Assembly (NCBI RefSeq): GCF_011806385.1
Contig: NZ_JAATOX010000036.1
Location: 1-32,811 of the forward strand
DNA length: 32,811 nucleotides
Direction of reading: 5' to 3'
DNA from: Phaeobacter sp. HF9A
GTDB lineage: Bacteria > Pseudomonadota > Alphaproteobacteria > Rhodobacterales > Rhodobacteraceae
The position numbers and the translations under genes were made by a program. The notes beneath the pieces are model-generated. The model ran no database searches. It had not been told where the DNA came from and worked only from the letters and a program-made list of their open reading frames with translations. Below, one piece after another: positions 18,662 to 30,345 of the stretch (positions within the stretch are counted from its first letter, which is position 1; every line of letters begins with the position of its first letter).

Positions 18662-18737
18662 GGGCCGTTAGCTCAGTTGGTAGAGCAACTGACTTTTAAT
18701 CAGTGGGTCGCAGGTTCGAATCCTGCACGGCTCACCA
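18662..18737 (+). tRNA. tRNA-Lys (anticodon TTT), CCA encoded
   Basis: The cloverleaf is complete: acceptor GGGCCGT/ACGGCTC, D arm GCTCAGTTGGTAGAGC, anticodon stem ACTGA/TCAGT with loop CTTTTAA, T arm GCAGG-TTCGAAT-CCTGC, discriminator A (18734) and genomic CCA (18735-18737). Its 3' end is the insertion target of the island that follows; the tRNA itself remains intact. Confidence 0.98.
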
Positions 18738-18740
18738 CTC
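18721..18740 (+). repeat. attL core, 20-bp direct repeat
   Basis: TCCTGCACGGCTCACCACTC spans the T-arm and acceptor 3' strand of tRNA-Lys plus three bases beyond CCA. The identical 20 bases recur at 28330-28349. Flanking bases differ on both sides, so the identity ends exactly there. The integrase gene ends 7 bases to the right. Confidence 0.9.
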
Positions 18741-18747
18741 CTCACCA

Positions 18748-19860
18748 TTACTGATCTCCTTTCAAGGGGTTAGGCGTTTCGGTGACGAACCTTTCGTCAT
18801 GGTTCGTCAAGTCTTGCTGGCCATTGGGCCTCGCGATGAGTTTTTCCATCGCTGATGTTGCCAGATCTTCTCGGCCAGCGGCTTCGGTGTAGAGCTGAAC
18901 CAGCGCCAACGTCTTGTGGCCGGTTACTGACGCGATTTCGTGTGTGGTTGCACCAGCTTCTGCCAGCCGCCGAGCGCAGGCTTTGCGCAGCCCGTGCGAG
19001 CTACACGCTGGCAACTCCGCTTCATTGCACCAGCGCCGCATTGCGTTCCCAAGCCCCGCAGCGGCACGGCTCTTTCCCGAAGATGTGGCCAGAAAGGTTC
19101 GGTCGTTTGGCAAAGCCATCAGGACATCAGCCAAATCTGTGTGCACCGGGATGCTGACCTTAGTACCACCAGATCGGGACGTCTTTTGACGACGGTATTC
19201 GATCCTGCCACCTTTCAGATTGTCAGGTCCCAACTGCACCGCATCCACACGCGCTGCGCCTGTGTAAAGCATCAGGGTCACTGCGAGGTGAGCGAGGCTG
19301 CCCGGTTTATGGACGGCAAAGAAGCGCGCTATTTCCTTCTCTTCCCAAGAGTGAAAGCCCGTCCCGGTCGTGCGGTAAGGCTTTGTCGCTCGGGCCGGAT
19401 TGTCTGCTCGCCAATCCAAGCTGATTGCATGGTCCAAGAGCTGGATCAGCCGTTTGCGCAAGTTGTTTGCTGCGGCAGGCGTTTCCGCTTTTTCGGCAAG
19501 CATTGCTTGAACGTGGCGGCGTTCGAGCTGCGCAATCGGTTTGTTCCCGTGAACTTCCCGAAACTTCTCGACAATCCGCCGGTATACACTCTTTGTACTG
19601 TCAGAAAGATCGAGGAACTCAGGCGAGCGATACCAAGACGCAACCAACGCGTTCACGCTACCCGGGATCGTGCGATCTGCGCCAATAAGGCCGCGCACGC
19701 GATGACCATTCAACGCGGCTTCATAGCGTTGAACGAACTCGTCAGACCCATACTCACGACCTAGCTCGACGGAAAAGCCGCCTTTGCGAAAGCGCCAGCG
19801 GCGCTTGCCGTGCCGGTCTGTGTAGTGCGTAGCGCCGGGGTATTGTTTCTTGTGTTTCAC
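18748..19860 (-). CDS. Tyrosine-type site-specific integrase
   Basis: The protein of about 370 residues has an N-terminal arm-binding region (HYTDRHGKRRWRFRKGG), a core-binding domain and a catalytic domain with the full set: R205 (TGAARVDA), K226 (RRQKTSRSGG), H289-R292 (SHGLRKACARRL), H315 (GHKT) and Tyr324 (LVQLYTEA). It should integrate and excise the element at tRNA-Lys, whose 3' end lies directly downstream. The frame opens at a GTG at 19872, but the GTG at 19860 overlaps the preceding stop (GTGA) and is preferred. It is the last gene of the head operon in the integrated state, which is unusual for an integrase. The stop TAA overlaps an ATG (TAATG, 18746-18750) that leads into the att core. 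Confidence 0.93.
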   Translation of the reverse strand: MKHKKQYPGATHYTDRHGKRRWRFRKGGFSVELGREYGSDEFVQRYEAALNGHRVRGLIGADRTIPGSVNALVASWYRSPEFLDLSDSTKSVYRRIVEKFREVHGNKPIAQLERRHVQAMLAEKAETPAAANNLRKRLIQLLDHAISLDWRADNPARATKPYRTTGTGFHSWEEKEIARFFAVHKPGSLAHLAVTLMLYTGAARVDAVQLGPDNLKGGRIEYRRQKTSRSGGTKVSIPVHTDLADVLMALPNDRTFLATSSGKSRAAAGLGNAMRRWCNEAELPACSSHGLRKACARRLAEAGATTHEIASVTGHKTLALVQLYTEAAGREDLATSAMEKLIARPNGQQDLTNHDERFVTETPNPLKGDQ

Positions 19861-20030
19861 GGCTGATCCCACGGGTTGTCTTTGGACTGATCAGCTTGAC
19901 CCATGGCATAGACGACAATGGTGCCGTCTGGCTTTGTCTCGGTCTTTGCAATGGGGATGCCTGCATCCCTGTGCGCTTTGAGACAGCGGGTAAGCTCTGC
20001 TTGGGTGACGATTGCCTTTCTATTCGCCAT
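19857..20030 (-). CDS. Small integrase-adjacent protein (57 aa)
   Basis: The product reads MANRKAIVTQAELTRCLKAHRDAGIPIAKTETKPDGTIVVYAMGQADQSKDNPWDQP. GGGAGGG lies 7 bases before the ATG. The gene overlaps the portal 3' end by 11 bases and its stop overlaps the integrase start (GTGA), so tight coupling on both sides supports it as real. The pattern of a short helix (QAELTRCLKAHRDAG) followed by a strand after PDG resembles small proteins often found just before tyrosine integrases in alphaproteobacterial islands. It might be an excision or DNA-binding accessory factor; this is inference. Confidence 0.75.
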   Translation of the reverse strand: MANRKAIVTQAELTRCLKAHRDAGIPIAKTETKPDGTIVVYAMGQADQSKDNPWDQP

Positions 20031-21237
20031 CGTCGCTGCCCTCCCGCTTGCCCAGCACGGTCATGTTGAGGGGCGACAGGTATTCCTCGCCGCCGTTGAT
20101 GTCTTTGAGGTTTTCCCATGCGCGGATTTCGTTTGGGCTGAGCCAGCCCCATTCGCGCCCGATGCGATACGCCTCATAGCGCGCTTTCATGTCGCCGCGC
20201 ATCAGCCCCGCCAGATCATGCTCCACAAAGTACCGCTTGCGCCCCTCAGAGGTCAGCAGGGCGACGTTCATCACCTGTTCGACGCGGCGCGCCATGGGGG
20301 CGAGGCAACGCACCACAAGCGCGCGGCTTTCGCCGTCCACATTCGAATAGGTGGCATTGTCGGTGATCCCCACAACGGTCGGCGGGACGCTGAACGTGCG
20401 GGCCACATCCATATTGGAGAGTTTGCGGCTGTCCAGAAACTCGGCGTCCTTGGCGGAAATGCTGAGGCTTTTCCAATCAAGGCCACCATCCAGCACCAGA
20501 ATGCCGGAGGTTTCCGCCTGACCTTCCACGCGATCGCGCATCTTTTGGAGAGCATCAGCCTTGCTGTCGCTGTTGATCTTCTGCGGGAACACCAGTGCGC
20601 CCTCGGCCCGAAAGGCGCGGCTTGCCTGCCGTGCGGCTTGATCCTGTTGCGTCAGCGCCAGCGAGAAAGTCTCCCGCGCCAACTGGATCGGCGAAACGCC
20701 CATGACGCCATCTTGGGACAGGCGGTATTTCAGATGCAGCACTTCCTCTTGGATCAGAGCCTTGGAGGTGCCCCGCGCCTCGCTGACGCGATACCGCAAA
20801 CGGCCGGAACCGAGCTTTTCCACGGTCACTGTGGACGGGTGCAGCGGGTAAAGCGCGATGACCTGGCCCCGCATATTGGTCTCGATCCGGGCGAATGCGT
20901 TGCCCATGGTCAGCAGCGACACCAAGAGGAATTCGCGCCCCTCAAATGCGGTCATCTGCGGGTTGAATTGATCGTGCAGAACGCCATGCAGCGGGTGGCT
21001 GGTCGCCCGTTCACGCCCGCCGTTGGCGCTGCGCGCATAGACGTTCATCGGCATGGCGGCGAGGTTCTGGCTGATGACAGAGATACATGCCTGCGCCACG
21101 GCCAGACCGGAGGCGCGGGCGGGGTCCACAAAACCGGCCCCATTCACGCGCTGACCCAGAAACTCGGCAAGAGCCGGGTCGGAGCTGGCGACCGTTTCGC
21201 GCTTCTCGCGCCCCAGAATGCGGGAAATCAGGCTCAT
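20020..21237 (-). CDS. HK97-type phage portal protein
   Basis: The 405-residue protein shows the HK97 gp3 pattern: AVAQACISVISQNLAAMPMNVYAR, HPLHGVLHDQFNPQMTAFEGREFLLVSLLTMGNAFARIE, ILVLDGGLDWKSLSISAKDAEFLDSRKLSNMDVARTFSVPPTVVGI and ATYSNVDGESRALVVRCLAPMARRVEQVMNVALL. Portals form the dodecameric DNA entry ring of the head and the docking site for terminase. The length is normal. It overlaps the protease gene by 4 bases upstream and the 57-aa gene downstream. In transcription order it is the fourth head gene, whereas in HK97-like phages the portal comes first. Confidence 0.95.
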   Translation of the reverse strand: MSLISRILGREKRETVASSDPALAEFLGQRVNGAGFVDPARASGLAVAQACISVISQNLAAMPMNVYARSANGGRERATSHPLHGVLHDQFNPQMTAFEGREFLLVSLLTMGNAFARIETNMRGQVIALYPLHPSTVTVEKLGSGRLRYRVSEARGTSKALIQEEVLHLKYRLSQDGVMGVSPIQLARETFSLALTQQDQAARQASRAFRAEGALVFPQKINSDSKADALQKMRDRVEGQAETSGILVLDGGLDWKSLSISAKDAEFLDSRKLSNMDVARTFSVPPTVVGITDNATYSNVDGESRALVVRCLAPMARRVEQVMNVALLTSEGRKRYFVEHDLAGLMRGDMKARYEAYRIGREWGWLSPNEIRAWENLKDINGGEEYLSPLNMTVLGKREGSDDGE

Positions 21238-21764
21238 GTCAGCAACTCCAGAATGCGCAGGCGGCGAGCGGCGGCGTCCCGCGTGGGGAAGCCGCCGACA
21301 AGCGAGCGGGCGTTGATGACGGTGCCCTCATAGGCCGGAAAGGCCGAAACCACGCTGATTTCGAACAGATCGACGGCGCGCAGCTCACGCCGCGCCCCAT
21401 CAACATGCTCATCAATGGCCTCAAAGCCGAAAGACATGCCGCCCAGATCGCCGCGTTCAGCAAGGGTCAGCACATCCCGACCCGCCTGCGTGTCCGGCAC
21501 ATCCATGTCAAAACTCAGCCCGCGCGTGTCCTCAGACAGGCGCAGCGAGCCGGAACGGGTGCGGGCCAGAACGCGGGTCGGGTCGTGATCCACCAGCGCC
21601 AGAATGTCCGCCCGCTGTGTGAGGGTGCGGGCGAACGCACCGGGGGCGATGGTTTCAACAACGCCGCTCCCGATACGCGCCTCAGAGCCGAAAAGGGCCG
21701 CATACCCTTCCAGGCGGCGTCCCTTGGCTCTGAGTTCTGTGGTTTGAAAGCGCTTCTCAATCAC
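21234..21764 (-). CDS. HK97-family prohead protease
   Basis: The 176-residue serine protease (U35/S78 family) has the N-terminal RLEGYAALFGSEAR, H60 (ALVDHDP), S111 (GGMSFGF) and an acidic residue at 135 (VDLFEISVVSAFPAYEGT), consistent with the family's catalytic residues. It would cleave the capsid delta domain during head maturation. It overlaps the connector gene (21761-21764) and the portal (21234-21237) by 4 bases each. Confidence 0.93.
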   Translation of the reverse strand: MIEKRFQTTELRAKGRRLEGYAALFGSEARIGSGVVETIAPGAFARTLTQRADILALVDHDPTRVLARTRSGSLRLSEDTRGLSFDMDVPDTQAGRDVLTLAERGDLGGMSFGFEAIDEHVDGARRELRAVDLFEISVVSAFPAYEGTVINARSLVGGFPTRDAAARRLRILELLT

Positions 21765-22042
21765 AGCGAAACACTCCGATAAGGCGCAATCAGGCGATCT
21801 ATTGCATTCGGCAGATAGGGAGCCTTGGAAAACGGCAAATCACCTTTGTTGTCCCAAAGATGCGTTGCCAGCATCAACACCGCTTGGTCCAACGCGGGAG
21901 GGAACGGGTCTGCGCTCATATCCACGCCAATCGACGCGATATGGTCTTTTGCTGCGTCCAGTGCGATCTGAAGTTCACCATCAAAATGGATTTCGTCAGG
22001 CATCAGTCGGCAGTGGGCCCTGAGTTGCGCAAGAGTGATCAT
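21761..22042 (-). CDS. Head-tail connector protein (gp6-like)
   Basis: The 93-residue protein MITLAQLRAHCRLMPDEIHFDGELQIALDAAKDHIASIGVDM...LDQAVLMLATHLWDNKGDL has the helical pattern of phage_connect/gp6 connectors, which extend the portal ring for tail docking. The frame is open far upstream, but the ATG at 22042 overlaps the capsid stop (TGATG), fixing the start. A connector in an element without tail genes suggests that its heads are meant to accept tails from elsewhere (inference). Confidence 0.85.
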   Translation of the reverse strand: MITLAQLRAHCRLMPDEIHFDGELQIALDAAKDHIASIGVDMSADPFPPALDQAVLMLATHLWDNKGDLPFSKAPYLPNAIDRLIAPYRSVSL

Positions 22043-23280
22043 CAGTCGATCTCCGCGTAGCGGAAACCCTCGGCGTGGCGCACCACCACATCCGCATCGA
22101 GGAAGGCATGCAGGATCGCACCGCCCTTGCTGGCCACATCGCTGTGATAGGGATTCATCATCAGGTCCACGCCGGACCAATACCCGATGTAGAGGCTGGC
22201 CCATTCGCCATAGATCAGAGCATTTTTGTCATTGGTTGCGCCGATGTTGTCCGGCACCTGAGTCGAGCTTTCCACGCGCTCATTGTGGAACAATTCGGAC
22301 AGCGGAATGGTGCGACCGTCACCGTCCTTGACCTTGCGGGCGGTGTTCATCACCTTCTTGTTGGTGAGGAAGCCGGTGGTGCCGGTCACATTGTCGGTCT
22401 CCAGCGCGGCGATCAGATCGGCAGTGATATCGGAGCTGAAAGCGCCAGGTGTAACAGCTGTGACACCCCCATCTGCCAGAATGCCGGTCGGCTCATCTGC
22501 ACCGCCGCCCTTGATCCCTGCGCTGTCCAATGCCTGCGCCAGCAGGTAGGCCAGATCGCCGCGCAGGATCGGCTCCAGCGCCTGATTGGATTGCAGCAGC
22601 ATCCGCCGGGACAGTTCATATTCCGCCGTGACCGTCTTCGGCCCCATGTCGGTTTTGGCAAAGCTGGCGTCAGTGCGGTTGCTGTTGGTGTGTTCCGACA
22701 CCCAGCCAGCGGCGCCGGAGCCGACAAGGCGGGGCAGTTCGAGATTGCCGGTCAGACCGCGCAGCACCGTTGCGCCCATGCCCTCCACCTTGAGAGCGGC
22801 GCGGCGGCGGTCGGTCATCGCGGCCAGATCGGTCTTGATCAGGTTGCCAGCGGTTCCGGCGCTGGTCAGGGCGCGGGTCTCGCCGCCCAGCAGGATCTCG
22901 GTCGGAACCATCACGCCCCGCACCTCGCCGCGATCCTTGGCCAGTTCCTGGTGCCATTCGGCTTCAACGCCGGACAGGTGACCGGAGCGGCATTCCATCA
23001 GCGCCTTGCGCACCGAGTAGCCCTCCAGCGAACGCCGGGCCACGGCGTCTTGGGTCAGGGTATCGCCGCGGGCTTCGAGCCGCTCAAACTCCGCGAGCTT
23101 CTGCGCATCCGTCAAACGGCTGTTGAGGCTGCGCACCTCGGCGTCCAGATCATCGAAGCGCTTGCGCTCTTCGCCCGACAGGTCGCGATTTTCCTTCGCG
23201 GCCTTGTCGTGGATGGTGTTCATTTCGGCAATCTTATTGCCGCGTGACTCTTGCAGGTCACGCAGGTTATGAGAGGTCAT
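22042..23280 (-). CDS. HK97-type major capsid protein
   Basis: The 412-residue protein begins with an Arg/Glu-rich coiled-coil delta (scaffold) domain (LRDLQESRGNKIAEMNTIHDKAAKENRDLSGEERKRFDDLDAEVRSLNSRL), followed by the HK97 fold with GWVSEHTNSNRTDASFAKTDMGPKTVTAEYELSRRMLLQS, DSAGIKGGGADEPTGIL and the C-terminal AILHAFLDADVVVRHAEGFRYAEID. The ATG at 23280 follows GGAAGGA and is preferred to the ATG at 23295. The order capsid-connector-protease-portal is the reverse of the usual module order. The gene is led by a small HTH gene 76 bases upstream. Confidence 0.95.
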   Translation of the reverse strand: MTSHNLRDLQESRGNKIAEMNTIHDKAAKENRDLSGEERKRFDDLDAEVRSLNSRLTDAQKLAEFERLEARGDTLTQDAVARRSLEGYSVRKALMECRSGHLSGVEAEWHQELAKDRGEVRGVMVPTEILLGGETRALTSAGTAGNLIKTDLAAMTDRRRAALKVEGMGATVLRGLTGNLELPRLVGSGAAGWVSEHTNSNRTDASFAKTDMGPKTVTAEYELSRRMLLQSNQALEPILRGDLAYLLAQALDSAGIKGGGADEPTGILADGGVTAVTPGAFSSDITADLIAALETDNVTGTTGFLTNKKVMNTARKVKDGDGRTIPLSELFHNERVESSTQVPDNIGATNDKNALIYGEWASLYIGYWSGVDLMMNPYHSDVASKGGAILHAFLDADVVVRHAEGFRYAEID

Positions 23281-23356
23281 CTTAGTTCCTTCCATTGGAA
23301 TTGAGGTGGAAGGTCAGCGCGGTCCGGTCGCCAAACTAGTGCCGCGCTGGCCGGTA

Positions 23357-23890
23357 TTATTTTGTGCAGTTCGGATAGATCTGATCGAGAACTTCAAATG
23401 GGTGCAGGTTCATCCGTGCGCAAACCCGGTTGAAAACATCCGATGCATCAATGACGACAAACCCTTTTCCGACACGAGAACGGAGTTTGCCGTATGTGTC
23501 GCGGTTCCCATCATACGTCCACAGTTCGACTGCAGTGTCTTCGGGACCGACGGCAAAGAGCGTATCTCCGTGGCTATGGTGAAAAGGAAATGAGGGGTTG
23601 CGCTCTGGCAGACCATCCACCCCTTCGCCTTCACTGAAGTGCGCAAACTCAATAGCACGTTTCGCTGCCTCGCTCGCGCTCCCCATCCCAGCATCCAGAA
23701 GTGCTTTCATGATGGCGAACTGCATGATTGAGAAGAACGTGAAAAGGCGGTGTTTGCCCTGAGATCCCCCCCCAGCGTCGGACCTGTGCCCAACCACAAC
23801 ATTGCGTTTCAGCCAGTTTTGCAGTGTCGCTGCGGGAATGTCCGTGAATTCACTTACATAAGAGAGGGTATATTTCGCTGACAGGTCCAT
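23357..23890 (-). CDS. MerR/AlpA-like HTH regulator of the island
   Basis: The 177-residue protein has an N-terminal winged-helix-like segment at about 6-36 (KYTLSYVSEFTDIPAATLQNWLKRNVVVGHR), the arrangement seen in MerR and excisionase/AlpA DNA-binding domains, followed by HRLFTFFSIMQFAIMKALLDAGMGSASEAAKRAIEFA and a C-terminal part of unknown function. AAAGGA precedes the ATG. Its own promoter carries a cluster of CCTTATA repeats that could be its operator. As the first gene of the head operon it is a candidate switch for satellite induction, as AlpA is in some Gram-negative satellites (inference). Confidence 0.7.
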   Translation of the reverse strand: MDLSAKYTLSYVSEFTDIPAATLQNWLKRNVVVGHRSDAGGGSQGKHRLFTFFSIMQFAIMKALLDAGMGSASEAAKRAIEFAHFSEGEGVDGLPERNPSFPFHHSHGDTLFAVGPEDTAVELWTYDGNRDTYGKLRSRVGKGFVVIDASDVFNRVCARMNLHPFEVLDQIYPNCTK

Positions 23891-23917
23891 GTCGGTTTCC
23901 TTTAAATGGTCAAGTGC

Positions 23918-23965
23918 CCTTATAAAGGTTCATAAGACCTTATATGCCCGTCGTCAAGTATAAGG
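23918..23965 (-). promoter_or_regulatory. Promoter and operator cluster of the head operon
   Basis: On the minus strand TTGACG (23952-23957), a 17-base spacer and TATGAA (23929-23934) form a plausible promoter for the HTH/head operon. The heptamer CCTTATA occurs at 23918-23924 and 23938-23944 on the plus strand, 20 bases apart, and inverted at 23959-23965. The middle copy is part of a perfect 12-bp palindrome ATAAGACCTTAT (23932-23943) lying over the spacer and -10. This is a typical layout for a repressor or MerR-type activator site. Confidence 0.6.
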
Positions 23966-23994
23966 GTCGCGTGACCATTTTTAGTTGCTTGAGG

Positions 23995-24378
23995 TTAGCC
24001 TGATAGGCTTCCCATTTGCTCGCCACCAGCTGCACGCCAGATCCCGGCAATGAGCATGGCATCGGGCATGGCGCATTCCTTTTCAAACGCTGGATTGTCT
24101 TCTGCCGAACTGGGGCCTGCCAAGGTCCATAGCACATGGGCAAAGGCGGCGATCCCCGGTGTTGAGCAGGGTGTGAGCTGGATCAATTCCCAGAAGGCGG
24201 CTTCCTCTCTCGTTTCAGCATCTTTACTCTCGGCGCTGTCCCAATCTTCATTGCCGGGTTCCTCTGAGACCGCGAGCCAGTCTTGGCGGGCGCGGCACCA
24301 GTCCCGGTACAGGGGGACAACGGGGTCTATGGCGGCGGACACAGTTTCACTGTTCGCGCAAACGCGTTCTTTGGGCAT
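23995..24378 (-). CDS. Conserved hypothetical island protein (127 aa)
   Basis: The product begins MPKERVCANSETVSAAIDPVVPLYRDWCRARQDWLAVSEEPGNEDWDSAESKDAETREEAAFWELIQLTPCSTPGIAAFAHVLWTLAGPSS. Proteins with this DPVV-LYR-W / LTP-S--GIAA-AHVLW pattern are frequent in Rhodobacterales prophages; no function is known to me. CGGAGA lies 8 bases before the ATG. It is transcribed divergently from the XRE gene, and its promoter is covered by one of the two operators in the shared control region, so its expression is probably controlled by that repressor. Confidence 0.75.
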   Translation of the reverse strand: MPKERVCANSETVSAAIDPVVPLYRDWCRARQDWLAVSEEPGNEDWDSAESKDAETREEAAFWELIQLTPCSTPGIAAFAHVLWTLAGPSSAEDNPAFEKECAMPDAMLIAGIWRAAGGEQMGSLSG

Positions 24379-24402
24379 TGTTCGGTTCTCCGAATTGGGG
24401 TA

Positions 24403-24458
24403 TCACTATTTTATGTTGATAGAGGATTGGCGCAACATGCGTCAACATAAAATGTTGA
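24403..24458. promoter_or_regulatory. Divergent promoters with twin operators
   Basis: Two related 17-bp sites flank the 81-base gap between divergent genes: TCAACATAAAATGTTGA (24442-24458, 7-bp arms) and TCACTATTTTATGTTGA (24403-24419; in the reverse orientation it differs at two positions). Each covers a -10-like box (TAAAAT at 24448-24453 plus strand; TAAAAT at 24408-24413 minus strand). Overlapping -35-like boxes lie between them (TTGGCG 24427-24432; TTGCGC on the minus strand 24430-24435). The rightward start would fall on the A of the XRE ATG, implying a leaderless message. Confidence 0.6.
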
Positions 24459-24459
24459 T

Positions 24460-24690
24460 ATGACACCAGCGCAATGCCGGGCAGCACGTGCCCTAATCGG
24501 TATGACACAACCACAACTAGCCAAGGCAGCAGGTTTTGGTTTATCTACGATTGTGGATTTTGAGAAGGAGCGGCGCGTGGTTTCATCCACCGCTCAAATA
24601 AGAATGATGGAAGCACTTGAGGGCGCCGGGGTCGAGTTTATTCCAGAAAATGGTGCCGGAGCAGGTGTTAGGTTGAAGAAGAGTGTTTGA
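24460..24690 (+). CDS. XRE-family HTH regulator (76 aa), possible antitoxin or repressor
   Basis: The product MTPAQCRAARALIGMTQPQLAKAAGFGLSTIVDFEKERRVVSSTAQIRMMEALEGAGVEFIPENGAGAGVRLKKSV is a single helix-turn-helix of the Cro/C1 type plus a short tail common in alphaproteobacterial regulators of this size. No ribosome-binding site precedes the ATG, and an operator abuts it, suggesting a leaderless, autoregulated transcript. Its stop overlaps the toxin-like gene (TGATG). It may repress both divergent promoters, act as antitoxin, or do both. It reads opposite to the structural genes. Confidence 0.88.
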   Translation: MTPAQCRAARALIGMTQPQLAKAAGFGLSTIVDFEKERRVVSSTAQIRMMEALEGAGVEFIPENGAGAGVRLKKSV

Positions 24691-25094
24691 TGGCGATTAA
24701 ATACGATGTATCGCCTAGGACCATTTTGCTGTGCGACTATAGTAAGGGTGGGTTCCGCGCACCAGAGATGGTCAAGCGTAGGCCAGTGATAGCCATTTCG
24801 CCGCGCCTGCGTCACAGAAGTGGCCTGATTACGGTAGTACCATTGAGTACAACCGAGCCTGAACGGGTCGCGGATTATCACTGCAAGATTACCCTTGCCT
24901 CCCCTCTTCCAAACTTCACAACAACGGAATGTTGGATCAAGGCTGACATGATAGCGACCGTAAGCTTTGAGAGATTAGACTTGTTTCGCACCCGGCGAGA
25001 CCAAACTGGCAAGCGTAAGTATCTAACGCCCCGCATCTCGGAAGACGATTTTGATCGTGTTAAAGCGTGCATCACTGCTGCTTTGGGACTGTAA
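24690..25094 (+). CDS. PemK/MazF-like toxin domain protein
   Basis: The 134-residue protein MAIKYDVSPRTILLCDYSKGGFRAPEMVKRRPVIAISPRLRHRSGLITVVPLSTTEPERVADYHCKITL...ETECWIKADMIATVSFERLDLFRTRRDQTGKRKYLTPRISEDDFDRV matches the PemK/MazF SH3-like barrel: start strand with CDY, KRRPVIAIS, TVVPLST and ECWIKADMIATV. Family members are mRNA-cleaving toxins; activity here is not proven. A TTG one codon earlier is possible, but the ATG at 24690, which overlaps the XRE stop, is preferred. Together with the XRE gene it forms a two-gene unit resembling an addiction module that would stabilise the island. Confidence 0.82.
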   Translation: MAIKYDVSPRTILLCDYSKGGFRAPEMVKRRPVIAISPRLRHRSGLITVVPLSTTEPERVADYHCKITLASPLPNFTTTECWIKADMIATVSFERLDLFRTRRDQTGKRKYLTPRISEDDFDRVKACITAALGL

Positions 25095-25156
25095 ACCCAG
25101 TTTCCGAAATCGCTTCAGAACTGGAAAAAATAATTTCCAAAGTGATTCGCTATTCA

Positions 25157-25185
25157 TTGACCTTTAAGGAGTCAACCGCTATATT
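25157..25185 (+). promoter_or_regulatory. Strong sigma-70-like promoter of a candidate small RNA
   Basis: TTGACC (25157-25162), a 17-base spacer and TATATT (25180-25185) are close to consensus. The promoter lies 62 bases after the toxin gene and points at no gene: the next feature is a terminator about 55-95 bases on. Confidence 0.65.
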
Positions 25186-25191
25186 CCCCTT

Positions 25192-25282
25192 GTCCGCTCG
25201 TGCTGCAAAGCATTGAGCCTCAAGACCACCAACGTGGCAGCCCCGCTATGGCGATAACAAGCCCAGCGGGGCTTCGTTTTTT
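25192..25282 (+). ncRNA. Candidate small RNA, about 91 nt
   Basis: The predicted transcript runs from about 25192 to the T-run ending at 25282. It has a 47-base 5' part without obvious structure and a strong 3' terminator hairpin, the usual plan of a trans-acting small RNA. No convincing coding frame with a start signal lies inside it. Only its last two or three bases overlap the convergent terminase gene, so it is not an antisense RNA of that gene. Targets are unknown. Confidence 0.5.
25239..25282 (+). terminator. Intrinsic terminator
   Basis: AGCCCCGCT (25239-25247) pairs perfectly with AGCGGGGCT (25265-25273) around a 17-base loop and is followed by TCGTTTTTT. It serves the candidate small RNA and also any read-through from the XRE-toxin pair. 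Confidence 0.85.
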
Positions 25283-26948
25283 AAGCAAGAAGTTCCGCCA
25301 GACACAGAGGCAAGTCCTCCTCGCCTTCGCGATCCACAACCGCCAAGGCCATAGCCAGCGCCACGATCCCATCAATGCGCCCGCTTGATTTGCCCTTGTC
25401 CAGCTTCCTGTTGCCTGCTGGGTCCATCTCCACCACCGCATTGGCCGCGCAATAGGTCAGCACCGGATTGGCCGCGTGGCGCAGGCGCGCCTCGGCCACC
25501 GCACGCTCCAACCGGTCAACCGCAGGGGCCATATCGCGGAAACCCTGCCCGAAGGGTTCCAGCGGCGGTTCCGCCCCCATCTTGCCAAGCTCACGTTTCA
25601 GATCTTCGATGCGCCAGCGGTCATATGCGATCATCTGCACATCATAGGTCAGGCAGGCATCGGCAATCGCCTCGGCCACAAAGGAAGGATCGACCACCGG
25701 GCCGGGAATGAGGGTCAAAAAGCCCTGACGCGCCCAGAGGTCATAGGGCACCCGGTCCTGCTCTGACTTTTCGCGAATGCCCTGCTCTGGCAGGAAGAAC
25801 CGGGGCAGCAGATCAAAGCCGCCGGCCTCATCGGGAAAGACCAGGACAAAGGCGGTCAGGTCGCGGGATTGCGACAGATCCAGCCCGCCCCAACATTGCC
25901 GCCCATCCAGCGCCTTGAAGTCCACCGCCCCCGCGTTGGCGTCCCATTCCGCTTTGGCGAGGAACCGCACGTGAGCGTCCACCCGCTGGTTCAGGATCAG
26001 GTTGCGAAACGCTTGCTCCTTTGAGGGCATCCGCTGCGCTTGGCCTGCCTGCCGCCTCACATCCTCCAGAGAGCGGAAGTCACCAAGGGCGGGGTTGGCC
26101 TTGTGCCATGTTTCCTCGATCCACGGGTCATCATCCGCCTCGGCCCCGTAGAACGTCATATGAAAGCTGGGATCATCGACCTCGCCCGAATTGACCTTGT
26201 GGCCATAGTCCACCAGCTCAGACATGACCGCGTGGTCATCGGCAGCTTGGGTGCTGATGACGCACAAGAGCGGGTTTGCCCGCGCGCCCATGGCGGTGTC
26301 CAGCGCCTCATAGAGGTCGCGCTTGGGGGCGGTGCCGAGTTCGTCGTAGATGGTGAAGCTGGGGGAGAGGCCCTGTTTGGTGCTGGCGTCGGCAGAGAGG
26401 GCTTGGAAGATCGAGCCTTTGCCCTGGCCGGTCAGAACCTCGATCCGCTTGCTGAACTTGATGACGTTGGCGCGGGCGTCCAGTTCCGGGTGTTCATCTA
26501 GGATGGCAACCATTTCCGCGAAGGTCTTGCCCGCCTGCGCCTTGTCGTTCGCTGCGGCGTAGACCTCGCCCCGGCTTTCGGCCTCTGGCCCCAGAAGGTG
26601 GCACAGCCCCAGACCGGCCACCAGCTGGGTTTTGCCGTTCTTGCGCGCCATGGACAGAACAGCGGTGCGTACCGGGCGCAGACCGTCTGCATCCTCGGCA
26701 TAGATCGCTTCGAGGAACTCGCGCTGCCAATCACGCACCTGGAGCTTGGTTCCGGCGAGGCTGCCCTGCGTGATCGGCAGATCCTCCAGAAAGGCCACAA
26801 CACGCTCGACGCGGCTCAAACCGGGTTGTTCCCACGGCAGAACGGTGCGGAGCGGGGAGACCTCGCTTGCGGCAAAGCCAAAGCTGCCCTGTGGATTGTC
26901 CGCGATTACCGCCAGTTTTGGTTTTGCGCCTTTGCCTCGTTGTCCCAT
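25281..26948 (-). CDS. Phage terminase large subunit
   Basis: The 555-residue packaging motor has an ATPase domain with a Walker A-like ARKNGKT (101-107) and Walker B FTIYDE (D202, E203), followed by an RNase H-like nuclease domain with GGLDLSQSRDLTAF (first metal aspartate D357) and a later IAYDRWRIEDL. The type is the Terminase_1/HK97 group. It would cut and pump DNA into heads built from the island's own capsid genes. The ribosome-binding site is weak (AGGT about 10 bases upstream). It is separated from the head genes by the oppositely oriented regulator-toxin-sRNA block. Confidence 0.95.
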   Translation of the reverse strand: MGQRGKGAKPKLAVIADNPQGSFGFAASEVSPLRTVLPWEQPGLSRVERVVAFLEDLPITQGSLAGTKLQVRDWQREFLEAIYAEDADGLRPVRTAVLSMARKNGKTQLVAGLGLCHLLGPEAESRGEVYAAANDKAQAGKTFAEMVAILDEHPELDARANVIKFSKRIEVLTGQGKGSIFQALSADASTKQGLSPSFTIYDELGTAPKRDLYEALDTAMGARANPLLCVISTQAADDHAVMSELVDYGHKVNSGEVDDPSFHMTFYGAEADDDPWIEETWHKANPALGDFRSLEDVRRQAGQAQRMPSKEQAFRNLILNQRVDAHVRFLAKAEWDANAGAVDFKALDGRQCWGGLDLSQSRDLTAFVLVFPDEAGGFDLLPRFFLPEQGIREKSEQDRVPYDLWARQGFLTLIPGPVVDPSFVAEAIADACLTYDVQMIAYDRWRIEDLKRELGKMGAEPPLEPFGQGFRDMAPAVDRLERAVAEARLRHAANPVLTYCAANAVVEMDPAGNRKLDKGKSSGRIDGIVALAMALAVVDREGEEDLPLCLAELLA

Positions 26949-27015
26949 TTTATCAAACCTAATTAAGTATTTATCTGACTTCCCCCTCGGTTGCGGGGGT
27001 GTTTGTTTCTCGTGA

Positions 27016-27336
27016 TCAGGAGCGCCCCCACCACCCGTCGGCAGGATCTATCGGGTTGCCGTTCGCGTCACATCCTTTGAAGCGGCGTCCGGTTGCGTTG
27101 CCTTTGGTGCGATCAAAGCCGGAGGTTTTCTCGTTGTGGCAGCGTTCGCACAGAGACATGAGGCCGGACAGTTCGGGGAATGGATCACCGCCTTGGCTGA
27201 TGGGCTTGATGTGATCGACGGTTGTGGCTTCGACCACTTGGCCACGTTGCTGGCAGGCAAAGCACAGCGGGCTTTCATCCAGCTTCACAAGGCGCAGCCG
27301 CTTCCATGTGCTGGTGCAGTAGGGCCATTTATTCAT
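27016..27336 (-). CDS. HNH endonuclease (packaging-associated)
   Basis: The 106-residue protein has a zinc site formed by C25, C28 (CFAC) and C63, C66 (CERC) around the HNH motif: DH at 41-42 (TTVDHIKPISQGGDPFPELSGLMSLCERCHNEKT) and H67-N68. Small HNH proteins next to terminase genes cooperate with terminase in cos-type DNA cutting in HK97-like phages. The start overlaps the end of a 22-codon frame. Terminase follows after 67 bases, in which a GC-rich hairpin (about 26976-26993) occurs. Confidence 0.92.
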   Translation of the reverse strand: MNKWPYCTSTWKRLRLVKLDESPLCFACQQRGQVVEATTVDHIKPISQGGDPFPELSGLMSLCERCHNEKTSGFDRTKGNATGRRFKGCDANGNPIDPADGWWGRS

Positions 27337-27397
27337 CGCTCTGCCCGTCCCGCATTGCCTTGATGATGTCGCTCAGTTTTTTCCAGTTATCGTTCAT
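27329..27397 (-). CDS. Possible 22-aa leader peptide upstream of HNH
   Basis: ATG at 27397 opens a 22-codon frame (MNDNWKKLSDIIKAMRDGQSDE) with a purine-rich AGAGAGAG about 5 bases upstream. The stop lies 8 bases inside the HNH gene, so translation could be coupled. The short, charged, helix-like product and the overlap are the only evidence. Confidence 0.35.
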   Translation of the reverse strand: MNDNWKKLSDIIKAMRDGQSDE

Positions 27398-27743
27398 TGC
27401 TGCTCTCTCTATATTCTCTAACGTTGCACCAAGTCCCTACTGCTCAATGGTGAGACCCGGAGCAGAAGGCATAGGGCGACCAGCCCCGGCCAAGCTGGCC
27501 GAGCTGGTCCCTAGCCTTCAGCGTGAAGATCCTGCTCAACGGAGCCGACCCATCGCTTTCAGGCGCCTCCAGTCCCGACGATCCATGCCGGAGGCTCAGT
27601 CGCTACTTGCGGCGCTTGGATTGACGCCGGGGGACGCGCTTCGACCTTTCGGGCTGCGCTTTGGCCTGTGTCCCCACCCCGTGGTGTGCCAAGTGTTTCG
27701 GTGCGTGCCACCGTCTGAACCGTCCACGCATCGACAGCGCCAA
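27398..27743 (-). pseudogene. Gene-free stretch, perhaps a decayed small terminase
   Basis: No intact gene with a start signal is seen in these 346 bases, at the place where a small terminase gene is usual. One minus-strand frame is open from the preceding gene to 27559 and contains ATEPPAWIV; a second frame immediately continues with DWRRLKAMGRL. A PP-W / W-RL series is seen in P27-type small terminases, so a frameshifted remnant is possible. The plus strand has an open frame too, but without a start site and not recognisable. Low certainty. Confidence 0.25.
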
Positions 27744-27974
27744 TCAGGCGGCGCTGGAGCCTTCTTTCTCGATCTCGATTACATCTTGGGCGTCTTCATC
27801 GAAGAGGCTGGCCACCATGCCTTGCATGGCGTCCAACTGCTTCTGTGTCGGGTTCCAGTTCTTCCACCGGGCGCGGCGGGCCATATTGGCGGCAAACTGG
27901 CGTTCCCATGCGCTCCCGGCGGTGCGGGACAGCCGGGGCATGTAGAAAAGGAGGTGTTCGAGGGTGCGCTGCAT
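27744..27974 (-). CDS. Hypothetical island protein (76 aa)
   Basis: The product MQRTLEHLLFYMPRLSRTAGSAWERQFAANMARRARWKNWNPTQKQLDAMQGMVASLFDEDAQDVIEIEKEGSSAA is a small basic-then-acidic protein. The segment WNPTQKQLDAMQGMV resembles a helix-turn-helix-like pattern seen in many Rhodobacterales phage proteins of this size. Its ATG overlaps the previous stop (TGATG), showing coupling. Function is unknown; a packaging-related or small-terminase-like role is conceivable because it lies upstream of HNH and terminase. Confidence 0.7.
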   Translation of the reverse strand: MQRTLEHLLFYMPRLSRTAGSAWERQFAANMARRARWKNWNPTQKQLDAMQGMVASLFDEDAQDVIEIEKEGSSAA

Positions 27975-28207
27975 CACTGCGCCCCATCCCGGCTCCTGCC
28001 GAACAGGGCCAGAGAGGCGACGTCATGCGCGTCGTCTGCATCCATGCTGATCAGGGCGGCATAAGCCAAACCGGCGCGCTCTGCTTTGGTCAGGCGCACG
28101 GTGAGAATGACCGATAGATCCACCCATGCCTTGGGCGTTGCGAGCGTCAGCGCATAGCCAAGGCAGCGCGCTACTCGTTTGTGCCCGTCTTTGGCAAAAC
28201 GGGACAT
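27974..28207 (-). CDS. Hypothetical island protein, N-terminally cut by attR (77 aa as integrated)
   Basis: From the ATG at 28207 the product is MSRFAKDGHKRVARCLGYALTLATPKAWVDLSVILTVRLTKAERAGLAYAALISMDADDAHDVASLALFGRSRDGAQ. The middle part (ATPKAWVDLSVIL..RLTKAERAGLAYAAL) is of a type common in Rhodobacterales phages, with no known role. No ribosome-binding site precedes 28207. The frame stays open upstream through attR to a TAA on the host side, with no ATG, GTG or TTG in frame. In the excised circle the frame gains an ATG (complement of 18746-18748) with AAGGAG 7 bases before it, giving 127 residues starting MVRSGEPCRTLSSLSGQDVS. Confidence 0.75.
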   Translation of the reverse strand: MSRFAKDGHKRVARCLGYALTLATPKAWVDLSVILTVRLTKAERAGLAYAALISMDADDAHDVASLALFGRSRDGAQ

Positions 28208-28329
28208 TGCGGAGCCAGCGACGCGAGGCTTGTTTGCGTTCGCCAGACGCGAGAATTCTTGTTTGTTTTCAGTGGGCTGATTTTCCCGGTTCGTCAGGCT
28301 AACATCTTGACCGGAAAGACTGGATAGCG

Positions 28330-28349
28330 TCCTGCACGGCTCACCACTC
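28330..28349 (+). repeat. attR core, 20-bp direct repeat
   Basis: Identical to 18721-18740. It is not preceded by the rest of a tRNA, as expected for the distal end of an element inserted into a tRNA 3' end. The host-side flank CTTTTCAATGGGTTAGCG resembles the element-side flank of attL (CCTTTCAAGGGGTTAGGCG, from 18759), suggesting that element and target share imperfect homology beyond the core. Confidence 0.88.
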
Positions 28350-28914
28350 TTTTCAATGGGTTAGCGAAATCGCAGCTTCCCATTTTTTGCTTCCAGCAAC
28401 CACCTAGCTACCACCTTGCATGAAAAAGTGTGGTGCCCTGTGGTATTTCGCGTTTTGAGCAGCAGGTGAATTAGGCGGCTTTATCATGGGCTTGTCAGGT
28501 TCTTGAGTGCGTGGAGGCCGTGCAGGGCTCGTCGTTTCCCGCCGATCATCAAGCGACAGCACTAAGGCGCCCAACGTCATATTCAAACGCCATCATTCAG
28601 TCGAGGCGTGTTCGTTTGCAAATTGGCCACCAGTTGATTAGAGCCATAGGTTCATGACTGCAGCCAGCCCAAATGAGACATTCGTTCTGCGCCTGCATCA
28701 GATGGCCCTACCTTCTGGCCCTGCGCGGGACGCAGTTGTTCGCTGCAAATGACAAATTATCGGCATAGCGGCCAAGCGGACCTTCCCAACCTGACCGAGA
28801 AAGACAATACACCGACTGAACTGTTGGAAGCCCTATGGACCTTTTAGCCTGCATCTTGTGTAGTGCGCTCAGCCCTAGCGTGCCGACGCTACGAATATCA
28901 TTTGAGGTGACAGT
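28350..28914. other. Gene-free stretch between attR and the TerY-P triad
   Basis: No gene is supported here. A 58-codon minus-strand frame (28404-28580) is Pro-rich, has no ribosome-binding site and is unlikely. The composition is more AT-rich than the left half of the window. A 9-bp inverted copy of part of the att core (CCGTGCAGG, 28518-28526) is present but may be chance. The promoter of the triad probably lies in the last 150 bases. Confidence 0.55.
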
Positions 28915-29592
28915 ATGGACGAATTCGAACAAGAGCCATTTGTAGACGCTGTGTTACAGGAGAACCCTGAACCAAGGTGCCCCGTGCTTTTATTGTTGGA
29001 CACTTCCTATTCAATGAGCGGCGCTCCAATTTCAGAATTGAACGAAGGCTTGGCAACGCTTCGCGAAGAACTATTGTCGGACTCATTGGCTGCAAAGCGT
29101 GTCGAATTGGCGATGGTGACTTTCGGACCAGTAGAGACCCGCAATGAGTTCGCGACAGTCGATAACTTCTATCCCGAGACTTTGGAAGTTGGCGGAGCTA
29201 CCCCAATGGGTGAGGCAATTCTGTCCGGCTTGGAAATGCTTCGCGCAAGAAAAGACCACATTCGTTCGAATGGCCTCAAGATCTTCCGCCCTTGGGTCTT
29301 TCTGATTACCGACGGCGCGCCAACAGATAGCTGGAACGAAGCAAAACGCAGCGTTCACGAAGGTGAAGAGCGCAAAGAGTTTATGTTCTACGCCGTGGGG
29401 GTGGAACAGGCGGACATGGGCGTACTTGGGCAGATTGCTACTCGCCAGCCCCTTAAGCTAAAAGGGCTGGCCTTCAAGGAACTGTTTCAATGGCTATCCA
29501 GTTCGCTTAGCGCCGTTTCCCAATCAAACCCCGGCGATACCGTTCCGCTTACTAACCCCACCGCTCCCGATGGCTGGGCTGTAGCGGAATAG
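28915..29592 (+). CDS. vWA-domain protein, TerY/YegL-like
   Basis: The 225-residue protein is essentially one von Willebrand A domain. The metal site (MIDAS) is intact: D29-x-S31-x-S33 ([12 protein letters not shown]), T96 (GGATPMGE) and D133 ([10 protein letters not shown]). GAGGTGA lies 5 bases before the ATG. It is followed after 4 bases by a PP2C gene and then a kinase, the order of the TerY-P triad and of E. coli yegL-yegK-yegI. In that family the vWA protein is thought to be a regulatory or assembly partner controlled by the kinase and phosphatase. Base composition is lower in GC than the core genes. Confidence 0.9.
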
Positions 29593-29596
29593 TATT

Positions 29597-30343
29597 ATGG
29601 CGTGGCGGTGGGCGGCTGCGTCCGAGATTGGCACATCTCACATTCGGAATGGTGTACGGCTTCAAGATGCCTACGCCGTTTCGATGGTCAGAGATGATTG
29701 CATTTTCGCTATCGTTTCTGATGGTGCGGGAAGTGCTGAATTCAGTTCTTTTGGGGCATGGCTTGTATGCCGGTCACTAACTGTTCGTTTCCGAGATTGG
29801 TTGCGCGAAAATCCGGATTTGCCGAATGATGAAATTATAGTCGAATGGATTGATGAAATTCGAGACCGCATTGCGGCTACTGCTGACCGACGCAAAACCA
29901 CTTCCCGCCAATTTGCGGCTACACTGGCGGCAGTCGTTTCGACACCCGACGAAACGCTTACTTTGCACATAGGAGATAGCGCAGTTGTCGGTCGCCGTAA
30001 TGAAGAATGGGACGTTCTTTGCTGGCCCGAAAATGGCGAATACGCCTCAACAACATTCTTTGTGACCGATGATCCAGAACCTCGCTTCAACATCGCGCGC
30101 TACACGCGCGAGCATGACGCATTCGCCTTGTTCTCAGATGGTGTTGGCGATCTGGCGTTATCCCATTCTAAACAGACTGCATCCCCTCAGTTCTTCACGC
30201 CAATGCTACGCCCCGTGGACAACGCGCAAAGCGTTGGGCGGTTGCCTGAGTTGTCAGCTAAGCTGCGCAGATATCTTGCCAGTCCTGCGATTTGTGAAAG
30301 AACGGATGATGACAAGACGCTCATCCTTATTTCTGGGGGCTGA
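29597..30343 (+). CDS. PP2C-type protein phosphatase, YegK-like
   Basis: The 248-residue phosphatase has the PP2C metal-binding aspartates in order: D24 (RLQDAY), D42 (VSDGAGSA), D127 (HIGDSAVV), D181 (LFSDGVGDL) and the terminal RTDDDKTLILI. It lacks a membrane segment, so it is cytoplasmic. It should reverse phosphorylation by the downstream kinase. Only 4 bases separate it from the vWA gene and 2 from the kinase, so the three are one operon. Confidence 0.9.
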   Translation: MAWRWAAASEIGTSHIRNGVRLQDAYAVSMVRDDCIFAIVSDGAGSAEFSSFGAWLVCRSLTVRFRDWLRENPDLPNDEIIVEWIDEIRDRIAATADRRKTTSRQFAATLAAVVSTPDETLTLHIGDSAVVGRRNEEWDVLCWPENGEYASTTFFVTDDPEPRFNIARYTREHDAFALFSDGVGDLALSHSKQTASPQFFTPMLRPVDNAQSVGRLPELSAKLRRYLASPAICERTDDDKTLILISGG

Positions 30344-30345
30344 AC

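What the first reader, a model, noticed from the sequence alone, without database searches (positions are those of the whole stretch)
18741..28329. Excision would rebuild a split gene and join two operons across attP
Seen directly: the gene at 27974-28207 stays open upstream through the attR core but meets a TAA on the host side with no start codon or ribosome-binding site. Joining position 28329 to one core copy and then to 18741 (the circular form), the same minus-strand frame continues AGG-AGT-GGT-GAG-CCG-TGC-AGG-ACG and gains an ATG (complement of 18746-18748). AAGGAG lies 7 bases before that ATG, inside the last integrase codons, and the ATG overlaps the integrase stop as TAATG. The rebuilt product is 127 residues, 50 longer than the integrated version, with residues 4-9 coded by the tRNA-derived core. 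The head-portal-integrase series would then run on into the small genes, HNH and terminase. Integration would thus separate terminase from the head operon promoter, and excision would restore it. Placing attP inside a gene is known from integration-dependent immunity in some mycobacteriophages; here it would act on structural and packaging genes.
Basis: partly seen in the sequence, partly recalled or inferred. Interest (0 to 1): 0.88.

Follow-up and report, generated by a model that had tools for sequence, protein, structure and literature searches.

The report
Excision completes a split satellite gene
A small virus-like DNA island in a bacterium splits one of its own genes when it sits in the chromosome and would make that gene whole only when it pops out, and related islands keep the same arrangement, which suggests a switch that holds DNA-packaging genes back until the island has left.

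Summary
I tested it on relatives. Of 24 islands of 9.1-11.3 kb with an identified att core, 20 keep this frame open from the integrase end, through the core, to the gene's stop; three have another core-spanning ORF and one has none. In 14 islands checked, the stretch is stop-free in the gene's frame in 9 and in neither other forward frame in any. At one tRNA-Cys core, three integrase types use three reading frames; the gene matches its own integrase in 8 of 9 elements, while 7 of 7 typed junctions between different islands are out of frame. So the attP-spanning gene is real and under selection. That excision thereby switches on the gene and the terminase behind it is the likeliest reading, but it is inferred: no circle, transcript or protein was seen. 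Closest known kind: attP-in-gene switches, here with opposite polarity. New variant of a known kind.

The parts
18662..18737 (+). tRNA-Lys(TTT), integration target
   Evidence: ARAGORN
18721..18740 (.). attL core, 20 bp
   Evidence: exact repeat
18746..18748 (-). start codon of the rebuilt gene, overlapping the integrase stop (TAATG)
18756..18761 (-). AAGGAG, ribosome-binding site 7 nt before that start, inside the integrase gene
18748..19872 (-). tyrosine integrase, 374 aa
   Evidence: PF00589 E 1.6e-11
20020..21237 (-). portal
   Evidence: PF04860
21234..21764 (-). prohead protease
   Evidence: PF04586
21761..22204 (-). head-tail connector
   Evidence: PF05135 and phrog_40; overlaps the capsid ORF end, so its true start is probably inside
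22042..23295 (-). major capsid protein, HK97 type
   Evidence: PF05065, phrog_617
25281..26948 (-). large terminase
   Evidence: PF20441, PF03354
27016..27336 (-). HNH endonuclease
   Evidence: PF01844
27744..27977 (-). small orphan gene after the split gene, 77 aa, overlaps its end
   Evidence: no Pfam or PHROGs match; relatives follow the gene in several islands
27974..28207 (-). body of the split gene as read in the integrated state, 77 aa
28208..28329 (-). island part of the 50-residue N-terminal extension
28330..28349 (.). attR core, 20 bp, codes residues 4-9 in the circular form

Best explanation
A 9.6-kb phage satellite with its own head and packaging genes has its attP inside the 5' part of the gene that follows the integrase. 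SHOWN from sequence: excision at the cores would give a closely coupled int-gene pair whose coding sequence runs through the tRNA-derived core, and this is kept by selection over many related islands with several integrase types. INFERRED: integration takes away the gene's upstream promoter, ribosome-binding site and start codon, so the gene, and probably the small genes, HNH and terminase behind it, are expressed only from the excised circle. The likeliest benefit is that terminase and HNH cannot act on the host chromosome while the island is integrated.
For: Junction ORF exactly as predicted. Gene's frame open across the core in 20 of 24 islands, ATG start in 16 and GTG only in 4; 17 of the 20 have a start within -20..+10 of the integrase stop, 9 of them at -4, overlapping the stop. 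Zero-stop stretches: 9 of 14 in the gene's frame, 0 of 14 in each other forward frame. Shine-Dalgarno match median 6 nt at junction starts against 3 at the best internal start; 5 or more in 16 of 21 against 3 of 21. At one tRNA-Cys core three integrase types use three frames; own gene matches in 8 of 9 elements, typed mixed junctions 0 of 7. Integrases form 10 clusters at 40% identity among 27. Extension dN/dS 0.42, 0.29 and 0.47 in three pairs. Terminase on the gene's strand and downstream in 17 of 17 islands where found, out of 24. Second layout: att upstream of the integrase in 9 loci where a tRNA-linked repeat was found, and int and gene not separated. Empty site in G525.
Against: No circle, transcript or protein seen; among 64 viral-contig relatives no same-type int-core-gene junction was found: the three with an integrase just upstream (L141, L151, L174) are mixed types, though many of these contigs start near the gene. 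Four of 24 islands break the gene's frame (L052, L061, L062, L065). One G477 element pairs a gene and integrase of different type. Promoters not found. L003/L004 extension gives dN/dS 0.87, on 4 changes. In 7 of 24 islands no terminase was found by my profile. The protein has no known function.
Confidence: 0.65

Rival explanations
1. The protein really starts at the internal Met (28207). The upstream DNA is only the integrase arm-binding part of attP and its open frame is incidental, so excision changes nothing for the protein.
For: The integrated ORF is open from 28207. Arm-like repeats do lie in the extension (three types). The extension is less conserved than the body (window/L005: 60% against 84%).
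Against: No Shine-Dalgarno match at the window's internal ATG; frame statistics; frame follows integrase type at one shared core; four relatives start upstream of the Met.
Confidence: 0.07
2. The rebuilt gene is real and used in the circle, but it does not control terminase: the genes behind it have their own promoter and are regulated separately, and attP lies in the gene only because integrase and attP moved as a module.
For: No promoter or transcript data; in L052, L062 and L065 the core-spanning ORF is separate from the gene, which has its own start; L061 has no core-spanning ORF and still has the gene.
Against: Terminase follows on the same strand in 17 of 17 islands where found; no promoter-like site at attR in the window (a weak test).
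Confidence: 0.2
3. The island is a decayed remnant that no longer excises, and the frame is a relic of past mobility.
For: One copy in the genome; no tail or replication gene recognised among 13 ORFs searched; no circle seen.
Against: The named genes are open and the cores identical. A same-type island (integrase 80%) sits in tRNA-Arg elsewhere. An empty site exists in a congener. The public contig L002 is identical to the window and adds nothing.
Confidence: 0.08

Closest known systems
Integration-dependent immunity of mycobacteriophages and M. abscessus prophages (PMC9262239, PMC8092301, PMC9934374; passages read)
   Same: attP core inside a coding sequence next to a tyrosine integrase gene, tRNA site, integration changes the product; tandem prophages with related cores use different frames (PMC9934374).
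   Different: There the repressor loses its 3' end and becomes active on integration, and arm-type sites are said to be absent. Here the gene loses its 5' end (start and ribosome site), it is not recognisable as a repressor, arm-like repeats lie in the coding part, and it leads a packaging operon.
Tn916 circularization-dependent expression (PMC11658703; passages read)
   Same: Element genes are silent when integrated for lack of a promoter and are expressed across the junction after excision.
   Different: Tn916 is a conjugative element and in the passages read only transcription crosses the junction; here a reading frame does, in a head-encoding satellite.
ICEKp1 / ICEclc state-dependent integrase promoters (PMC13023037; passages read)
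   Same: Circular junction brings a promoter to a gene next to attP.
   Different: The controlled gene there is the integrase; no coding sequence is rebuilt in the passages read.
Archaeal suicidal integrases, SSV type (PMC8371274; passages read)
   Same: att site inside a gene that integration splits and excision rejoins.
   Different: There the split gene is the integrase itself; here the integrase stays whole.
Helper-embedded PICIs (PMC10111431; abstract and outline read)
   Same: A late gene interrupted by integration is restored when the satellite excises.
   Different: The interrupted gene belongs to the helper prophage; here the island splits its own gene.
Capsid-forming PICIs (PMC13230959; passages read)
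   Same: Own capsid, portal, protease, connector, HNH and terminase, no tail genes.
   Different: A split gene across attP is not mentioned in the passages read; helper induction untested here.

Membership tests
Capsid-forming PICI | Own head genes (capsid, portal, protease, connector) with terminase and HNH | tested here: met
Capsid-forming PICI | No tail genes | tested here: met
   13 window ORFs searched in Pfam and/or PHROGs, none matched a tail family; 27337-27743 is unassigned
Capsid-forming PICI | Small terminase gene | tested here: inconclusive
   none recognised; the two small orphan genes matched nothing
Capsid-forming PICI | Stl-like regulator and induction by a helper phage | not testable with these tools
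   an HTH gene is present (24460-24690, HTH_31); induction needs experiment
Integration-dependent immunity | attP core within a phage coding sequence beside int | tested here: met
   predicted junction
Integration-dependent immunity | Split gene loses its 3' end on integration | tested here: not met
   the 5' end is lost
Integration-dependent immunity | Split gene is the immunity repressor | tested here: inconclusive
   no DNA-binding family matched for 17 relatives; predicted helical, no fold match
Suicidal integrase | att core inside the integrase gene | tested here: not met
   the core lies beyond the integrase stop in the window; integrase intact
Tn916-type circularization-dependent operon | No promoter for the operon when integrated; junction-crossing transcript when excised | tested here: inconclusive
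   no promoter-like site at attR; no RNA data

The most novel reading that the evidence does not exclude
A widespread class of head-forming satellites uses its attachment core as protein-coding sequence: integration physically parts int from a closely coupled gene that leads the terminase operon, so packaging is licensed only by excision. The frame used through a shared tRNA core is specific to the integrase type, so tandem neighbours of different type cannot switch each other on.
Probability: 0.5. Interest if true: 0.88.

Novelty: new variant of a known kind. Interest (0 to 1): 0.82.

Why it matters
It would be an attP-in-gene switch of opposite polarity to the mycobacteriophage one: built by excision, on a gene that leads packaging functions, in satellites that carry their own heads. 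It offers a testable answer to how such elements avoid packaging or cutting the host chromosome while integrated. It shows tRNA-derived attachment DNA used as coding sequence, with different integrase types reading one tRNA core in different frames. It also points to an unnamed protein family and gives a simple genomic rule (frame across attP) for pairing the ends of tandem islands.

Tried and rejected
Rejected: (1) Chance open frame: other forward frames fail and frame follows integrase type. In one search some off-frames do run 50 or more codons past the core, but with a start only in L052 and L062, where they are the substitute ORFs; L042, L061, L062 (second off-frame) and L096 have such runs without a start. 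(2) Internal start at 28207: no ribosome site, relatives start upstream. (3) L057 as a natural circle: integrase and gene adjacent, but among host genes, with a stop in the core and mixed arm types. (4) L174, L151, L141 as natural circles: arm types differ on the two sides. (5) G477 as intact prophages: the 28-41 kb spacings hold island ends with unrelated genes between, judged by eye from ORF lists of the third element. (6) Function by family or fold search: only single weak hits, no PDB sequence match, no fold match at E 0.001. (7) Phage and plasmid collections: no match to the 77-aa body. (8) Promoter and terminator scans: uninformative.

Dropped before counts: of 28 loci with an integrase on the same strand more than 3 kb downstream of the gene, 24 were used. 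L003 and L004 end at the integrase stop; L059 has its core about 3 kb from the gene; L113 has only a 10-mer there and belongs to the second layout. The L038 core is 10 bp and would not be significant alone; it was kept because it sits at the same tmRNA end as the 13-bp core of L048. In the tRNA-Cys test L065 was left out of the 9 because its core-spanning ORF does not reach the gene (that ORF reads the frame of its integrase type); L042 and L096 use another part of tRNA-Cys. One mixed junction (L065, upstream integrase) could not be typed.
Full report
1. The observation. The window holds an island bounded by an exact 20-bp repeat at 18721-18740 and 28330-28349; the left copy lies at the 3' end of tRNA-Lys(TTT). 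On the minus strand it carries integrase, portal, protease, connector, capsid, a MerR-like gene, large terminase, HNH and small orphan genes; an HTH gene and a PemK-like gene lie on the plus strand. Integrated, the frame meets a host TAA and has no start before 28207. A same-genus genome has the uninterrupted site (94% over bases 1-203 of the 291 joined bases, junction at 120/121).

2. Relatives. The 77-aa body matches 41 of 394 genomes of the window's family and 40 of 390 drawn from its order (the samples overlap). Every listed hit is in the same family; how many of the 390 came from other families is not shown. The family name Rhodobacteraceae rests on the title of one related record (L005). 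No phage or plasmid record matched. Seventeen relatives match no Pfam, NCBIfam or PHROGs family beyond single weak hits. I fetched 75 regions. There are two layouts. In one, the integrase lies downstream at the far end of the island and attP falls between its 3' end and the gene. In the other, the integrase lies about 1 kb upstream of the gene, with an AlpA-like gene between in those I read (by eye, label recalled); a tRNA-linked repeat was found in 9 such loci, 22-169 bp before the integrase ORF. In that layout integrase and gene are never parted.

3. Test of the frame. Of 28 loci of the first layout, 24 have an att core. Core-to-core size is 9,147-11,276 bp. Targets are tRNA-Lys, Arg(TCT), Arg(CCT), Glu, Cys, Phe, Thr, Met and tmRNA; none was found beside L062 and L086. 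Joined at the core, the gene's frame is open from a start on the integrase side to the gene's stop in 20 of 24: ATG in 16, GTG only in 4. Seventeen of the 20 have a start within -20..+10 of the integrase stop; 9 have one at -4, overlapping the stop. In the first 14 islands counted, the stretch from integrase stop to conserved domain has no stop in the gene's frame in 9, and in neither other forward frame in any. In L052 and L062 a different ORF starts near the integrase stop, spans the core and overlaps the gene's own start; in L065 such an ORF ends elsewhere; L061 has none. The 27 integrases compared form 10 clusters at 40% identity, so this is not one recent clone.

4. Ribosome sites and selection. 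The longest match to the anti-Shine-Dalgarno complement has median 6 nt at junction starts and 3 nt at the best internal start; 5 or more in 16 of 21 against 3 of 21 (20 islands plus one G477 element). Four pairs of extensions were alignable: dN/dS 0.42 (window/L005), 0.29 (L102/L106), 0.47 (L042/L096) and 0.87 (L003/L004, 4 changes).

5. A natural experiment at tRNA-Cys. Three integrase types with different arm-like repeats (GTTTCAAA, TGTAAACG, GTGATACC) use the same core and read it in three different frames. The gene is in the frame of its own integrase in L051, L060, L094, L099, L102, L106 and two elements of a G477 tandem array; the first G477 element pairs different types and looks chimeric (8 of 9). 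Starts are ATG except L094 and L102 (GTG); L099, L102 and L106 also have an open ATG in another frame. Where islands of different type stand in tandem, one island's integrase faces another's gene across the same core, and no start is in the gene's frame in 7 of 7 typed junctions (L057, L087, L089, L102 upstream, L141, L151, L174). Similar frame reasoning was used for tandem mycobacterial prophages (PMC9934374, passages).

6. What it does. Shown: the excised form would encode a closely coupled int-gene pair, and selection has kept it. Inferred: the gene is off when integrated and on when excised. Terminase lies on the gene's strand and downstream in all 17 islands in which a profile found it, of 24, so integration probably silences packaging too, which would protect the chromosome from terminase and HNH. 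There is no promoter evidence either way. The longer form of the protein is predicted helical (mean pLDDT 82, pTM 0.44), without a PDB sequence match or fold match at E 0.001.

7. Known systems. attP inside a gene is known in mycobacteriophage repressors (PMC9262239, PMC8092301, PMC9934374) and archaeal suicidal integrases (PMC8371274); expression after circularization in Tn916 (PMC11658703) and for integrase in ICEKp1 and ICEclc (PMC13023037); of these I read passages. A satellite that restores a helper's late gene on excision is known (PMC10111431, abstract and outline). I found no report of a satellite splitting its own gene at the 5' side, nor of this family, in searches, which cover open-licence PubMed Central only. 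Hence a new variant of a known kind.

8. Confidence. Rebuilt gene a real, selected coding sequence: about 0.93. Expression confined to the excised state: about 0.7. Control of terminase by it: about 0.55. No circle was seen: of 64 viral-contig relatives none showed a same-type int-core-gene junction, but many begin near the gene.

Noticed in passing
window 24460-25094 (+): HTH gene overlapping a PemK/MazF-like gene (PF02452 E 2.7e-12), opposite in strand to the rest of the island: a possible toxin-antitoxin pair; relatives of the HTH gene occur in several islands.
   Followed up: partly
window 28915-32496 (+): Next to attR three host-side ORFs look by eye like a von Willebrand A protein, a PP2C-type phosphatase and a kinase with a C-terminal zinc ribbon (labels recalled, not searched).
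   Followed up: no
window 27337-27743 (-): About 400 bp between HNH and the small gene has no ORF of 60 aa on the minus strand, yet the spacing is kept in L003, L004 and L005; a cos site or a small terminase with an unusual start could lie there.
   Followed up: no
L042 and L096: The att core is the 5' part of tRNA-Cys, in the opposite orientation to the other tRNA-Cys islands, so the tRNA would take its promoter from the island (promoter part inferred).
   Followed up: no
L087-L089, L116-L120 (G477 C1 2774511-2881080): Tandem array with four tRNA-Cys cores and three elements, integrase types alternating, with unrelated genes between the island ends.
   Followed up: partly
L052, L062, L065: The core-spanning ORFs end in a shared HWG motif (HWGALV, HWGVAA), followed at once by an overlapping ATG; the G-run of this motif could be the next gene's ribosome site.
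   Followed up: partly
L002 (IMGVR_UViG_2898954250_000006): Public viral-contig record identical to window 18748-32496: it runs about 4 kb past attR and stops at the integrase gene, so its boundaries are not those of the island.
   Followed up: yes
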